A stretch of 25,151 bases of DNA, from positions 1 to 25,151 of the IMG/VR virus record IMGVR_UViG_3300036835_000168; one strand, 5' to 3'. The DNA comes from a virus. Below, piece by piece: positions 12,926-16,461 of the stretch; the stretch's first letter is position 1; the number at the start of each line of letters is the position of its first letter. The position numbers and the translations under genes were made by a program. The notes under the pieces were generated by a model that saw only the letters and a program-made list of their open reading frames with translations, ran no database searches and had not been told where the DNA came from.

Positions 12926-13206
12926 GCGGACGCCCGCTCGCCGAGCAGAGCGTCAACGGTCGCGAACACCTGCGGCTTGCCACCCAGCGGCGACATCTGC
13001 CTGACGAGCCCAGCCGCGCGCAGAACGCCGATCGCGACGTTCGCGGTCGAGTACGGGTGCCCCACCCTGCTTGCGATCAGTTCGGCGGCGACCGTGCGGC
13101 GGGTGAACACTCCTTGCCGCTCGATCTCCTCGATCGCGGCCTCGTACCGAGGCCACGTGTACGGCGACGGGGCGATCGGGAACAGGTCGCGGACCGGGCC
13201 GCTCAC
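12922..13206 (-). CDS. Winged-helix-like small protein
   Basis: A 94-residue frame from GTG 13206 overlapping the HTH gene stop (GTGA). The segment RYEAAIEEIERQGVFTRRTV, followed by AAELIASRVGHPYSTANVAI and GVLRAAGLVRQM, reads as a winged helix: two helices, a recognition helix, then a wing with GGKPQVFATV. It is likely a DNA-binding regulator. As the second gene of the early operon it could be a Cro partner, an excisionase or an early activator; sequence alone does not decide. Confidence 0.55.
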   Translation of the reverse strand: MSGPVRDLFPIAPSPYTWPRYEAAIEEIERQGVFTRRTVAAELIASRVGHPYSTANVAIGVLRAAGLVRQMSPLGGKPQVFATVDALLGERASA

Positions 13207-13397
13207 TGGCCGGCCTCGCTGTACCAGTTGATGACGGTCTGCGGTGTGACGTCGACCTGGCCCTTGGTGGCTTCGTAGATGTCGCGGGCGATGACGCGCC
13301 AGCTGCGGTCGGGGCGTCGTTCGGCGATGAAGTCGACGACGTCCTGCTTGAGCAGCGCGGTCGCCAGCTTCTGGTTGGCGCTCGTAGCTGTTGGCAT
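13203..13397 (-). CDS. Cro-like HTH protein, first gene of the leftward unit
   Basis: A 64-residue protein from ATG 13397, apparently on a leaderless transcript: there is no ribosome binding site, and a TACGTT -10 box ends eight bases before the ATG. The second half reads as an HTH: SWRVIARDIYEATKGQVDVT followed by PQTVINWYSEAG. It is divergent from the repressor and separated from it by paired operators, the place of cro in lambda and of the divergent small regulator in BPs-type mycobacteriophages. Likely represses the lysogeny promoter or fine-tunes the early promoter. Confidence 0.6.
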   Translation of the reverse strand: MPTATSANQKLATALLKQDVVDFIAERRPDRSWRVIARDIYEATKGQVDVTPQTVINWYSEAGQ

Positions 13398-13404
13398 GAG
13401 TCGG

Positions 13405-13433
13405 AACGTAGGCCAACTATTCGGAAAATACAA
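13405..13433 (-). promoter_or_regulatory. Early leftward promoter
   Basis: On the minus strand TTGTAT (13433-13428), a 17-base spacer and TACGTT (13410-13405), which fits the actinobacterial TANNNT -10. The ATG at 13397 is eight bases beyond, predicting a leaderless mRNA. Operator candidate 13412-13426 fills the spacer, so bound repressor would block polymerase. Confidence 0.5.
13412..13426 (-). promoter_or_regulatory. Operator candidate 1
   Basis: Reads TTCCGAATAGTTGGC on the minus strand and differs at one base from candidate 2. It sits between the -35 and -10 of the leftward promoter. Extra half-sites ttggc/gccaa occur at 13391, 13452 and 13485. Confidence 0.6.
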
Positions 13434-13462
13434 CGTCTAATACGAGGCTGAGCCAAGTTATC

Positions 13463-13477
13463 TTCCGAGTAGTTGGC
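13463..13477 (+). promoter_or_regulatory. Operator candidate 2
   Basis: Reads TTCCGAGTAGTTGGC on the plus strand, in opposite orientation to candidate 1, 51 bp away. It overlaps the -35 of the repressor promoter, consistent with autoregulation. A perfect 7-bp inverted repeat (agccaag at 13451-13457, cttggct at 13484-13490) flanks it. Confidence 0.6.
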
Positions 13478-13502
13478 AAATGTCTTGGCTAACCCGTAGA
13501 GT
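13473..13502 (+). promoter_or_regulatory. Repressor/integrase promoter
   Basis: TTGGCA (13473-13478), an 18-base spacer and TAGAGT (13497-13502). The repressor ATG at 13511 begins eight bases after the -10, again suggesting a leaderless transcript; no ribosome binding site is present. Confidence 0.5.
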
Positions 13503-13510
13503 CCCTGGCT

Positions 13511-13888
13511 ATGGGACGGGCGATGAAGATCCTCGACTTTCCGAGCGAGACCGATCGGGTCATCGCCGCTACCGTGCGCGCCCTCGCATCCGGACGCGAC
13601 CAATCGATCGAGCGCGTCGCGGTGAGTTGCAACATGACCAAATCGGCCCTGTACGAACGGATCAGAGGCATCCGCAGCTTCAAGGCACCCGAGGTAGCGG
13701 CCATCGCGGACCACTTCGGGGTCAGCGTCGGGGATCTCTACGATGGGCTCGGCGGCCGCTTCGGGCCGCCGAACGGGCCTCTAGCTCAATTGGCAGAGCT
13801 GCGGACTTTTAATCCAGAGTCCCGCTCTGCGAAAGTCATCAACTTCCCGGCCGGCAGACGCCGCAGCTCAGTGAAGCTCTCGGCCTGA
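13511..13888 (+). CDS. XRE-type immunity repressor with attP inside its 3' end
   Basis: Predicted to hold the prophage silent by binding the divergent operators. The 125-residue protein has a Cro/CI-type HTH at about residues 32-79: SIERVAVSCNMTKSALYERI, then APEVAAIADHFGVSVGDLYD. Residues 89-102 are encoded by 41 bp of a tRNA-Lys gene (13775-13815), the likely attP core. Site-specific integration would replace everything after about residue 102, including the basic tail ending RRRSSVKLSA. In mycobacteriophage BPs the same layout makes the viral form of the repressor unstable through a C-terminal degradation tag and the prophage form (103 residues) stable. The Leu-Ser-Ala end here only loosely resembles an ssrA-type tag. 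It is joined to integrase by TGATG. Confidence 0.8.
   Translation: MGRAMKILDFPSETDRVIAATVRALASGRDQSIERVAVSCNMTKSALYERIRGIRSFKAPEVAAIADHFGVSVGDLYDGLGGRFGPPNGPLAQLAELRTFNPESRSAKVINFPAGRRRSSVKLSA
13775..13815 (+). other. Phage attachment site (attP core): 5' part of tRNA-Lys(TTT)
   Basis: The 41 bases read as acceptor 5' strand GGGCCTC, TA, D-stem GCTC, D-loop AATTGGCA, GAGC, T, anticodon 5' stem GCGGA, loop CTTTTAA and TCC of the 3' stem. The next bases (AGAG) no longer pair, so tRNA identity ends at 13815 and the rest of the tRNA is absent. It therefore is not a working tRNA gene. Its place in front of integrase marks it as the crossover site with a host tRNA-Lys gene as attB. Confidence 0.85.
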
Positions 13889-14751
13889 TGCCGCCCGCTC
13901 GACATCTGCGTCTCGTACCTCCTGGTATGGACATCCCCGCATTGGACGAGTGGGAGCTCGCGCAGACACGCCGCTCACCGCGCACCATCGACGCTCGCAG
14001 CCGCATCGTCCGGCTGCTGGCACGCCGCCAGTCCGTTGACCCGGTCACTGCGGACTGGCACGACATCGCACGGTTCCTCGACAACCCGAGCTTCGCGGAC
14101 GGGACGGTGCTGACCTACTTCTCCGGGTTGGAGGCGTGGTTCAGTTGGCTTGTCCGCCAGGGCGTGCGCTCGGACAACCCGATGGATCGGCTTGAGAAGC
14201 CGCGCACGCCACGGCGGTATCCGCGGCCGATCACGACTGAGCAGCTGGGCCAGGTGCTCGCGACGGTGAACCGGCGGCGGACGCGAGCGATGGTGCTGCT
14301 CGGCGCGTATGAGGGGATGCGTGTGCACGAGATCGCCAAGCTGCGCGGGCAGGACTTCCGCAGTGGGTTGCTTGAGATCATCGGCAAGGGTCGACACCGT
14401 GCCGCGATCCCGGTGCATCCGGTCGTCACGGCGCTGCGTTCGGCGTTCCCGCAGATCGGCTGGTGGTTCCCGTCCTATCTGGATCCGGCAGTTCCGGTGA
14501 CGAGCAAGAACGTGTCGGCGGTGATCAGCGCCGTGATGCACCGTGCTGGTGTCGACGGCAGCGCGCACCAGCTGCGGCACTGGTACGGCACGAATGTGCT
14601 GACGTTGGCGGGCGGGAACATCCGCGTCGCTCAGGACGCGTTGCGGCACGGGTCGATCGCGTCGACGGCGATCTACACGCTGGTCACGGAGGCGCAGTTG
14701 CAGGCGGCGATCGCAAGCTTGCCAGTGCCATTGCATGCGGTAGGCGCGTGA
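13888..14751 (+). CDS. int: Tyrosine site-specific recombinase (integrase)
   Basis: Integrates and excises the phage at a host tRNA-Lys gene. The 287-residue protein has an N-terminal core-binding domain (helices about 18-100) and a catalytic domain. All active-site residues are visible: Arg145 (YEGMRVHEIAKL), Lys167 (IGKGRH), His227-x-x-Arg230 (HQLRHWYGTN), His254 (LRHGS) and Tyr263 (STAIYTL). The N-terminus is short, so an arm-type DNA-binding domain is probably missing or reduced, as in simple actinophage and XerC/D-like integrases. Translation is coupled to the repressor (TGATG). After integration it lies on the other side of the attachment site from the repressor promoter. No clear excisionase gene is next to it. 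Confidence 0.92.
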   Translation: MPPARHLRLVPPGMDIPALDEWELAQTRRSPRTIDARSRIVRLLARRQSVDPVTADWHDIARFLDNPSFADGTVLTYFSGLEAWFSWLVRQGVRSDNPMDRLEKPRTPRRYPRPITTEQLGQVLATVNRRRTRAMVLLGAYEGMRVHEIAKLRGQDFRSGLLEIIGKGRHRAAIPVHPVVTALRSAFPQIGWWFPSYLDPAVPVTSKNVSAVISAVMHRAGVDGSAHQLRHWYGTNVLTLAGGNIRVAQDALRHGSIASTAIYTLVTEAQLQAAIASLPVPLHAVGA

Positions 14752-15335
14752 TGGCCAGGGGCAAGCACGGCGTCGCGGCAGCTGGCAGGCGTGCCAATGA
14801 CGTTCTTGAAGCTGATCTCGCGACCTACCAACGCAAAGTCGCAGGGCAGGCCGCCGAGATCAAACGGCTCCGCGATGCACTCGAATCAGTACAACTGGAA
14901 TGGGGCAAGGAACGCCGCACTCTACTTGAGCAGCGTCGTCAAGGCGTGGCCCCGGAGCTCGCCGCCCGAGACCGCAAGATCCTGGAACTCACCGATCATG
15001 TGCAGCGAGCCGAACGGGCGGCCCTTCGACGCGAGGAACAGTTCACCAGCATCGTGCATCGCGCCATCGATCACTTCGCCGCCGATCATCATTGGTCGCG
15101 CCGAGAAGGGCTGGAGTTGGTGATGGCATGGCTCGGGATGAATACCGCCGTCGGGATCAGCGAGGACCAGCTGATCACGCTGGACGATAGCAAGATCGGC
15201 AGTAGGAAGAAGATGGGCGCCGAGGCGGTTCGGCGTCTCGAGCGTGCGCAACGTCGCCGGCATCGCAGCGCCGATGAATATCGGATCCCGCGCGCCGACG
15301 CTTCATCGGATGTCGATGCTCCCGATGAAGCGTAA
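14751..15335 (+). CDS. Coiled-coil protein of the lysogeny operon
   Basis: A 194-residue protein starting in a TGATG overlap with integrase. The first 100 or so residues are a charged coiled coil (ADLATYQRKVAGQAAEIKRL, then ELTDHVQRAERAALRREEQF). A helical segment IVHRAIDHFAADHHWSRREG and LELVMAWLGMNTAVGISE follow, then a basic RRLERAQRRRHR region and an acidic end. It could be a DNA-associated accessory factor such as a partition-, integration- or exclusion-type protein. Family not recognised. Co-transcription with the repressor suggests expression around establishment of lysogeny; in the prophage it is on the integrase side. Confidence 0.65.
   Translation: MARGKHGVAAAGRRANDVLEADLATYQRKVAGQAAEIKRLRDALESVQLEWGKERRTLLEQRRQGVAPELAARDRKILELTDHVQRAERAALRREEQFTSIVHRAIDHFAADHHWSRREGLELVMAWLGMNTAVGISEDQLITLDDSKIGSRKKMGAEAVRRLERAQRRRHRSADEYRIPRADASSDVDAPDEA
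15299..15332 (+). promoter_or_regulatory. Hairpin over a gene junction
   Basis: A perfect 11-bp inverted repeat (15299-15309 with 15322-15332) with a 12-nt loop spans the end of the 194-residue gene and the possible starts of the next gene (ATG 15310, 15316 in the loop; 15325 in the 3' arm). It could restrict translation of the downstream gene to ribosomes finishing the upstream one. Confidence 0.5.
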
Positions 15336-15675
15336 GCATCGGATACCGGTCGACAAGTTGCGTCTGTCCGATCCTGTCACTCCGGAGTACCAGTCCGAGA
15401 TCGACGCCACGATGGAGCGTGCGGCTGCCCGCTACGCGCAGGCGCAACGTGCGCTCGAGCGCGCTCAGGCCCGCGTCGCCCGGATCCGCGCCACAGCAGT
15501 AGAGCAGCGGCGTACCGCAGCCCATCGGCGGGAGCTCCGGATCGCCGAAGCGGATCTGGAGTTGAGGCGTGAGGAGCTGCGTCGCCTCGACTCGCTCATG
15601 CATGCGTCGCCGCAGTCGGCGTCCCATCGCGGCAAGCGGTCCTACAGACCACGACCCGATCCGAAGCTGTTCTGA
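15325..15675 (+). CDS. Basic coiled-coil protein of the lysogeny operon
   Basis: A 116-residue protein if it starts at ATG 15325 (ATG 15310 and 15316 are in frame and also possible; none has a clear ribosome binding site). The start overlaps the previous gene. The N-terminus is basic (KRKHRIPVDKLRLSDP), followed by one long Arg/Ala/Glu-rich helix (MERAAARYAQAQRALERAQA to LRREELRRLDSLM), then a basic, Ser/Pro-rich tail ending RPDPKLF. Function not recognised; likely oligomeric and possibly nucleic-acid-associated. Confidence 0.6.
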   Translation: MKRKHRIPVDKLRLSDPVTPEYQSEIDATMERAAARYAQAQRALERAQARVARIRATAVEQRRTAAHRRELRIAEADLELRREELRRLDSLMHASPQSASHRGKRSYRPRPDPKLF

Positions 15676-15932
15676 TGGTTGCACCGCGCCCGGTGGTCGA
15701 GAATGCCGACTACACCAGTTTCAACCGCCGTATTCTGCGCGCCATGGCCAAGCGTGCTTCCTCCGATATCGACGCGTTGCCGATGCTGGCCGCCACCCTC
15801 GAGGAGGGGCAGCAGCTGATGCGGGATGCGGTGACGCGGCTGCGCGCGGACGGGTACAGCTGGGCGGATATCGGTGCTCGGCTGGGGATCAGTAAGCAGG
15901 CCGCTCAGCAACGGTTCGGCGTCAAGGACTAG
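15675..15932 (+). CDS. Small HTH protein, end of the lysogeny operon
   Basis: An 85-residue protein beginning in a TGATG overlap. The C-terminus is a clear helix-turn-helix, [20 protein letters not shown] followed by RFG, of the sigma-region-4/HTH type widespread in small actinobacterial and actinophage proteins that share a helical N-terminus ([20 protein letters not shown]). Likely a DNA-binding regulator. Its TAG lies inside a bidirectional terminator and overlaps the end of the collagen-like gene on the other strand by 11 bp. Confidence 0.75.
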
Positions 15933-15944
15933 TTGACGCTGTTT
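15918..15944. terminator. Bidirectional terminator between convergent operons
   Basis: GCGTCAA (15919-15925) and TTGACGC (15933-15939) form a 7-bp stem with a 7-nt loop; a TGTTT run follows on the plus side. Stop codons of both convergent genes lie within the hairpin, so termination and translation end at the same place from each direction. Confidence 0.6.
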
Positions 15945-16461
15945 GCACGCACACGGCGAGGGTCGGTGTTCCCTCCGGATCGCGCTGGTGCACGGCGATG
16001 GTGGCCAGCGCAAACCCGGCGGGGCAGGTGCGTGGCGCGGTCACGGTAACGGTGGGTCCGGGCAAGCCGCGTGGACCGGCCGGTCCCGGGCTACCAGCAG
16101 CGCCCGCCGCGCCGCGTTTTCCTCGCGGACCGCGTGAGCCTGCCGCTCCCGACGCACCGGCCTGACCCGGGATTCCCTGGACACCCTGGACGCCTTGGGG
16201 GCCAGCGGCGCCGCGCTTCCCGGGTTTGCCCTGCTCGCCGACTGGTCCTGGTGGGCCCTGCGGCCCGGCTGGTCCCTCCGGGCCGGCCGGGCCGGTCGGG
16301 CCGGGTGACGGTGTCACCGTTGTGACCGACGCTGCCGGGGTGGTGGGGGTGATCGCCACCGCCGCCAGGGTCAGCGACCCGGCCAACAGCAGCAGCGCCG
16401 CGATGAACGCCGCGGACGCGGTGCGGAACACCTTCGCCGCGGCATCAGTCGGCGACATCAT
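15922..16461 (-). CDS. Membrane-anchored collagen-like protein
   Basis: A 179-residue protein from ATG 16461, overlapping the preceding stop by 17 bp. Residues about 15-37 form one membrane segment or uncleaved signal anchor ([19 protein letters not shown]), followed by a Thr/Pro/Val stalk. Residues 54-137 are 28 uninterrupted Gly-X-Y triplets, many with Pro in X, sufficient for a trimeric collagen helix. The C-terminal 42 residues hold two Cys ([14 protein letters not shown] and LAVCVQ), perhaps a small disulfide-bonded trimerisation or binding knob. Last gene of the late unit, after lysin and holin candidates. It may be a virion appendage, a spanin-like lysis protein or a surface protein shown by the host; undecided. 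Confidence 0.8.

What the first reader, a model, noticed from the sequence alone, without database searches (positions are those of the whole stretch)
13775..13815. The phage carries the 5' half of the tRNA, so a lysogen would make tRNA-Lys from the repressor promoter
Phages integrating in tRNA genes usually carry the 3' end and leave the host promoter in place. Here identity starts at the first base of the tRNA and ends in the anticodon stem. After crossover the intact tRNA would consist of phage 5' half plus host 3' half, downstream of the repressor promoter. The host promoter would face integrase and the two coiled-coil genes. If this tRNA is unique and essential, the cell would depend on a transcript that also encodes the repressor. 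This would be a form of addiction; it is inference from the arrangement.
Basis: inference. Interest (0 to 1): 0.85.

Follow-up and report, generated by a model that had tools for sequence, protein, structure and literature searches.

The report
Phage repressor gene carries tRNA's front half
A small bacterial virus keeps the front half of a lysine tRNA gene inside the end of its repressor gene, so that after inserting into the host chromosome the repaired, probably essential tRNA would sit behind viral instead of host control DNA; the repressor-trimming part is a known trick, but in every relative that could be judged it is built the other way round.

Summary
Bases 13775-13815 are an exact 41-bp copy of the 5' half of tRNA-Lys(TTT), from base 1 to the anticodon stem, as found in 45 actinobacterial genomes. 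It lies in sense and in frame inside a repressor gene whose stop overlaps the integrase start. Repressor and integrase belong to the families of the known integration-dependent immunity phages (BPs, Charlie, Brujita, Gordonia phages). Joining phage 5' half to host 3' half gives an intact tRNA-Lys and an in-frame TAG that shortens the repressor from 125 to 102 residues. All 15 published relatives with a recognisable tRNA half, and 13 chromosomal relatives, carry the 3' half in antisense and so keep the host tRNA promoter; only this phage carries the sense 5' half. The promoter swap therefore follows if this site is used. That the repressor promoter drives the tRNA is not shown: a -10-like TACGAT and a 9-bp hairpin just before the tRNA resemble host tRNA-Lys leaders. 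'Addiction' is overstated, since precise excision restores the host gene, although the tRNA is single-copy in 29 of 33 candidate hosts. No lysogen was found. Precedents with a 5' half and lost host promoter exist (archaeal pTN3; rarely bacteria). Verdict: new variant of a known kind.

The parts
13473..13502 (+). candidate repressor promoter PRep (TTGGCA, 18-nt spacer, TAGAGT), placed so that the mRNA would start about at the repressor ATG (leaderless)
   Evidence: only promoter-like site found in 13380-14000, shuffles mean 0.3; function not tested
13511..13888 (+). repressor gene, viral form, 125 aa (HTH, ends ...VKLSA)
   Evidence: HTH_31/HTH_3; best PHROG phrog_2328 transcriptional repressor, E 3e-7, the top PHROG of seven repressors from known integration-dependent immunity phages or their relatives
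13511..13815 (+). part of the repressor gene kept in the prophage; with host bases it would encode 102 aa ending LRTFNP
   Evidence: in-frame TAG (tRNA positions 43-45) in 45 of 45 host tRNA genes; simulated attL
13739..13744 (+). TACGAT, -10-like hexamer 36 bp before the tRNA start; candidate local promoter for the hybrid tRNA
   Evidence: one of 5 TANN[CA]T sites on the + strand of the whole window; host tRNA-Lys genes often have such a hexamer 28-49 bp upstream; candidate only
13749..13772 (+). perfect 9-bp hairpin (TCGGCGGCC-GCTTCG-GGCCGCCGA) ending 2 nt before the tRNA; candidate 5' leader
   Evidence: z -2.2; 4 of 1478 window 34-mers have a stem of 9 or more; synonymous-codon null p about 0.05
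13775..13815 (+). tRNA-Lys(TTT) 5' half, predicted attP common core, in frame inside the repressor gene
   Evidence: exact in 45 genomes
13806..13812 (+). anticodon loop CTTTTAA (anticodon 13808-13810), likely 7-bp strand-exchange region
   Evidence: ARAGORN anticodon position 34; crossover here is inferred from related Y-integrases
13816..13885 (+). virus-only C-terminal extension of the repressor (23 aa, ESRSAKVINFPAGRRRSSVKLSA) lost on integration
   Evidence: comparison of viral and simulated prophage forms
13888..14751 (+). tyrosine integrase, 287 aa
   Evidence: PF00589 E 7e-15; 44-45% identical to integrases of Charlie, Redi, Ewald

Best explanation
This is the repressor-attP-integrase switch of an integration-dependent immunity phage, in a variant in which the phage half of the tRNA is the 5' half in sense. 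In the free phage the repressor is made as a 125-residue form with a C-terminal extension (by analogy unstable). [quoted passage not shown] At one junction the repressor gene now runs into phage 5' half plus host 3' half: this rebuilds an intact tRNA-Lys and puts an in-frame TAG (tRNA positions 43-45) in the repressor frame, giving a shorter 102-residue, presumably stable repressor. At the other junction the host tRNA promoter and a dead 5' half are left in front of integrase. The hybrid tRNA is therefore transcribed from phage DNA, by read-through from the repressor promoter, by a local promoter inside the repressor gene (TACGAT plus hairpin leader), or both. Shown from sequence: anatomy, frames, families, intact hybrid tRNA. 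Inferred: use of the site, repressor stability, source of transcription.
For: 41-bp exact sense 5' half; in-frame TAG in 45/45 hosts; attL is called as tRNA-Lys and attR has none; repressor in phrog_2328 with the known systems; integrase closest to Charlie/Redi/Ewald; tRNA-derived residues lie at the matching place in the repressors; same order rep-attP-int with divergent genes; published BPs switch 136 to 103 residues (PMC4557955, PMC9262239); contig with a 127-bp direct end repeat, so attP is not an assembly end.
Against: No lysogen of this phage was found (no integrase above 45% identity in the searched genomes). The viral repressor ends LSA, not the usual AA, so the degradation tag is uncertain. 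Integrase and repressor are distant from the studied ones (about 45% and 12-27% identity). No RNA data.
Confidence: 0.76

Rival explanations
1. Sub-rival on transcription A: the phage carries its own tRNA promoter and leader inside the repressor coding region (TACGAT 13739, hairpin 13749-13772), imitating the host tRNA-Lys gene. The hybrid tRNA is then largely independent of the repressor promoter.
For: TACGAT 36 bp upstream lies within the host range (28-49 bp) and is one of only 5 such hexamers on the + strand; leader hairpins are enriched before host tRNA-Lys (stem of 6 or more: 29% against 12%); the phage hairpin is stronger than all 45 hosts. The Fionnbharth lysogenic tRNA-Lys has its own strong promoter (PMC10865867).
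Against: Given the protein sequence the hairpin is only p about 0.05; no -35 match; Tyr-Asp codons explain TACGAT.
Confidence: 0.5
2. Sub-rival on transcription B: the hybrid tRNA is made only by read-through from the repressor promoter and cut out by RNase P, so repressor and tRNA come from one transcript.
For: Only PRep passes the standard promoter scan and no terminator-like site lies between. AAA is rare (11 AAA, 108 AAG in 15 phage genes) and 30 of 33 hosts also have a tRNA-Lys(CTT) match, so little tRNA-Lys(TTT) may be needed.
Against: The scan also misses the host tRNA-Lys promoters (0 of 45 reach 9/12), so its silence means little. RNase P cleavage would remove the repressor stop codon, an awkward conflict.
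Confidence: 0.3
3. The 41 bp is an inert relic or decoy and not the attachment site; the phage integrates elsewhere or not at all.
For: No lysogen found; short identity only.
Against: Exact 41 bp at the place where relatives have attP, next to an intact integrase, ending in the anticodon stem, with a usable frame.
Confidence: 0.07
4. True addiction module: loss of the prophage kills the cell.
For: tRNA-Lys(TTT) is single in 29 of 33 candidate hosts; disruption of the single tRNA-Lys(TTT) of M. smegmatis needs a complementing phage tRNA (PMC10865867).
Against: Precise excision recreates attB and the host gene with its promoter; four hosts have 2-3 copies. Only imprecise loss or promoter death would be lethal.
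Confidence: 0.08

Closest known systems
Integration-dependent immunity of mycobacteriophages BPs, Charlie, Brujita and Gordonia phages (Broussard et al. 2013, described in PMC9262239 and PMC4557955)
   Same: Same order rep-attP-int, attP inside the repressor gene at the matching place, related repressor (phrog_2328) and tyrosine integrase, tRNA attB rebuilt, repressor shortened by host sequence.
   Different: [quoted passage not shown] Here the 5' half is in sense and the host promoter goes to integrase.
Archaeal pTN3-type integration (PMC8371274, PMC5495485)
   Same: 41-bp core in the 5' half of a tRNA gene, lying inside a gene of the element; rebuilt tRNA is separated from its host promoter; the review says the like is seldom seen in bacteria.
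   Different: There the integrase gene is split and the integrase promoter reads the tRNA; here the repressor gene is trimmed and integrase stays whole.
tRNA-dependent lysogeny (Fionnbharth, cluster L; PMC10865867)
   Same: Integration at tRNA-Lys(TTT); lysogen depends on phage-borne tRNA supply from a phage promoter.
   Different: There the host tRNA is destroyed (core of about 10 bp) and a whole phage tRNA complements; here the tRNA is rebuilt from two halves.
Small Gordonia cluster CW phages (GRU3, Jeanie; PMC5559632)
   Same: Small temperate actinophages with integration-dependent immunity at a tRNA-Lys gene; distant terminase similarity.
   Different: GRU3 has the antisense 3' half and an integrase only about 29% identical.

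Membership tests
Integration-dependent immunity | attP core lies inside the repressor reading frame | tested here: met
   13775-13815 inside ORF 13511-13888, in frame
Integration-dependent immunity | integration shortens the repressor through host sequence | tested here: met
   in silico only: 125 to 102 aa with all 45 hosts
Integration-dependent immunity | repressor homologous to known members | tested here: met
   phrog_2328 best hit (E 3e-7), top hit of seven repressors of known members or their relatives
Integration-dependent immunity | tyrosine integrase directly downstream, same operon, related | tested here: met
   stop/start overlap at 13888; 44-45% identity to Charlie, Redi, Ewald
Integration-dependent immunity | ssrA-like C-terminal tag on the viral repressor | tested here: inconclusive
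   ends KLSA; known members mostly end AA
Integration-dependent immunity | short form active, long form degraded; immunity needs integration | not testable with these tools
   needs lysogen and protein assays
Integration-dependent immunity, usual tRNA geometry | tRNA 3' half, antisense to the repressor (as found in relatives) | tested here: not met
   sense 5' half here; this geometry is common to the relatives, not part of the published definition
5'-half tRNA integration with promoter exchange (pTN3-like behaviour) | element carries tRNA 5' half; rebuilt tRNA separated from host promoter | tested here: met
   works like it in simulation (for the precedent); the integrase gene is not split as in pTN3, so not filed as a member
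tRNA-dependent lysogeny | short core, host tRNA destroyed, whole phage tRNA gene | tested here: not met
   41-bp core, tRNA rebuilt, no tRNA gene in the window

The most novel reading that the evidence does not exclude
In the lysogen one transcript carries both the repressor message and an essential tRNA, with the repressor's stop codon inside the tRNA. RNase P cleavage at the tRNA start would strip the last 14 codons and the stop from the repressor message, so each transcript yields either a tRNA or a full repressor; the nonstop product would be tagged by tmRNA and destroyed. Lysogeny would be tied to tRNA processing, and host tRNA promoter activity to integrase.
Probability: 0.15. Interest if true: 0.78.

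Novelty: new variant of a known kind. Interest (0 to 1): 0.52.

Why it matters
Tyrosine integrases target tRNA genes because the anticodon stem-loop is symmetric, yet phages nearly always keep the host tRNA promoter. This phage appears to break that rule inside a switch that already couples integration to immunity, so one crossover would trim the repressor, hand an essential tRNA to viral transcription and hand the host tRNA promoter to integrase. It gives a clean test of whether host-promoter retention is a real constraint, and of how a cell copes with a message whose stop codon lies inside a tRNA.

Tried and rejected
Close relatives: single-integrase and repressor scans of IMG/VR found none; tblastn of the repressor in phages none. 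The five closest integrases (L239-L243, 50-53%) have no recognisable tRNA half or evident repressor upstream. RecT relatives were only 31-47% identical and were not followed. Lysogens: none of the 45 host loci holds the repressor or a convincing integrase; prophage ends in the five genome regions examined could not be closed by direct repeats. My ARAGORN filter did not work and that list was sorted by eye. The record MT838127 looked like a phage with this tRNA but appears to be chromosomal DNA with a whole tRNA-Lys. Direct repeats for integrase arm sites: none. The standard promoter scan was calibrated on hosts and found uninformative.

Full report
What is there. The window is a 25,151-bp virus record with a 127-bp direct end repeat, so it is probably a complete circle and the site in question is internal. 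At 13775-13815 it holds GGGCCTCTAGCTCAATTGGCAGAGCTGCGGACTTTTAATCC. This 41-mer occurs exactly in 45 stretches of actinobacterial genomes (mostly Micrococcales, also Glycomyces, Nocardioides and others). ARAGORN calls every one an intact tRNA-Lys(TTT). Identity begins at tRNA base 1 and ends after position 41, where the phage has A and all hosts G. The window itself has no tRNA.

The half tRNA is not downstream of the repressor but part of it. The ORF 13511-13888 (125 aa) has an HTH, its best PHROG is phrog_2328 (E 3e-7), and it reads in frame through the tRNA segment; its stop overlaps the integrase start. phrog_2328 is also the top family of seven repressors tested from known integration-dependent immunity phages or their relatives (Charlie, Brujita, GRU3, Liefie, Ewald, Fireball, Hedwig). 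The integrase (287 aa, PF00589) is closest to those of Charlie, Redi, Ewald and kin at 44-45% identity. In these systems attP lies in the repressor gene, and integration removes a C-terminal degradation tag, as worked out for BPs: 136 residues in the virus, 103 in the prophage (PMC4557955; PMC9262239).

What integration would do. Joining the phage to the 3' half of each of the 45 host genes gives the same in-frame TAG at tRNA positions 43-45; the repressor would end LRTFNP at 102 residues. Because the hosts share this sequence, the 45 are not independent. In four simulated junctions ARAGORN finds tRNA-Lys at attL and nothing at attR, and an RNA fold keeps a leader hairpin separate from the tRNA. 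At attR the host promoter and dead 5' half face integrase, whose ATG is 113 bp after the tRNA start; no terminator-like site lies between.

How unusual it is. In 18 published relatives I looked for tRNA halves between repressor start and integrase. Fifteen have a clear one, always the 3' half in antisense. The same holds in 13 chromosomal relatives (L209, L210, L212-L216, L380, L385-L388, L390) and in 43 of the 56 IMG/VR loci long enough to judge (these include phages already counted). No relative showed a convincing sense 5' half. The search used tRNA arm motifs, so unusual tRNAs could be missed. In the repressor alignment the tRNA-derived residues sit at the same place, so the antisense 3' half and the sense 5' half look like two solutions at one site. 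My inference: both put the phage-borne half on the repressor side of a crossover in the symmetric anticodon stem-loop, so the tRNA is rebuilt on that side in either case, but only the antisense form keeps the host promoter.

Who transcribes the tRNA. Upstream of the ATG there is one promoter-like site, TTGGCA-18-TAGAGT at 13473-13502, fitting a leaderless message. Demand may be low: 11 AAA against 108 AAG codons in 15 phage genes, and 30 of 33 hosts have a tRNA-Lys(CTT) match. But there is also TACGAT 36 bp before the tRNA, one of only five TANN[CA]T sites on the + strand of the window, followed by a perfect 9-bp hairpin that ends 2 nt before the tRNA. Host tRNA-Lys genes often show such a hexamer 28-49 bp upstream and are enriched for leader hairpins (stem of 6 or more: 29% against 12% of random host 34-mers). 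Against this, synonymous recoding of the same amino acids gives a stem of 9 or more in 5% of trials, and the Tyr-Asp codons account for TACGAT. The standard promoter scan cannot decide: no host tRNA-Lys gene reaches its 9/12 threshold. I put a local promoter at about 0.5 and read-through alone at about 0.3.

Is it addiction. By pattern count tRNA-Lys(TTT) is single in 29 of 33 hosts; four have two or three. M. smegmatis has a single one, whose disruption is reported to need a phage tRNA for viable lysogens (PMC10865867). A lysogen of a single-copy host would thus depend on phage DNA for this tRNA. But precise excision recreates attB with its own promoter, so loss of the prophage by its normal route is harmless. 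The dependence protects against deletion or mutation of the repressor region, which is weaker than addiction.

A possible conflict. If the tRNA is cut from a repressor transcript by RNase P, the message loses its last 14 codons and stop. It would be a nonstop message, subject to trans-translation. Repressor and tRNA would then compete for each transcript. This is inference and is my most novel reading.

Known precedents. The archaeal review PMC8371274 states that with very few exceptions bacterial recombinant tRNA genes keep the original promoter, that pTN3-like integrases use the 5' half and the tRNA is then expressed from the integrase promoter, and that the like is seldom encountered in bacteria. 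PMC5495485 describes a shared 41-bp stretch in pTN3 with the tRNA separated from its promoter. So promoter exchange is not new as such. In IMG/VR I also saw unrelated contigs with a tRNA-Lys 5' half and no 3' half, two of them directly after an integrase-like reading frame (L413, L449). What I did not find elsewhere is the 5'-half arrangement combined with a repressor-trimming switch.

Limits. No lysogen of this phage or a close relative turned up in about 1,200 genomes searched, nor in the 45 host loci. The true host is unknown. The viral repressor ends in LSA where most relatives end in AA, so the degradation tag is uncertain. All statements on function are predictions from sequence.

Noticed in passing
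L413:4538 (reverse strand of locus) and L449:2538: Unrelated viral contigs carry a tRNA-Lys 5' half without the 3' half, in sense, 8 and 45 bp after the end of an integrase-like reading frame: candidate bacterial counterparts of the pTN3 arrangement.
   Followed up: partly
L137:3763 and L190:5948 (reverse strand of locus): Viral contigs with a tRNA-Lys 5' half ending exactly after TTTTAATCC and no 3' half: further candidate 5'-half attP sites, without a repressor gene identified as reading into them.
   Followed up: partly
L443:1423: Actinobacterial-looking contig where a tRNA-Lys 5' half is followed by non-tRNA sequence and an HTH gene: maybe the broken-tRNA junction of another 5'-half element.
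   Followed up: partly
window 13671-13679, 13797-13805, 13861-13869: The core-side 9-mer AGCTGCGGA/GAGCTGCGG recurs inverted on both sides of attP; possible integrase binding sites.
   Followed up: no
window 14751-15932: Two coiled-coil-like genes and a small HTH gene (phrog_686, sigma-70 region 4-like) follow integrase on the same strand and would lie behind the host tRNA promoter in a lysogen.
   Followed up: no
window 15922-16461, - strand: Collagen-like Gly-X-Y repeat protein with an N-terminal hydrophobic stretch (ORF list).
   Followed up: no
window 13203-13433, - strand: Small divergent gene opposite the repressor, in the place of cro/xis in relatives, with no PHROG match.
   Followed up: partly
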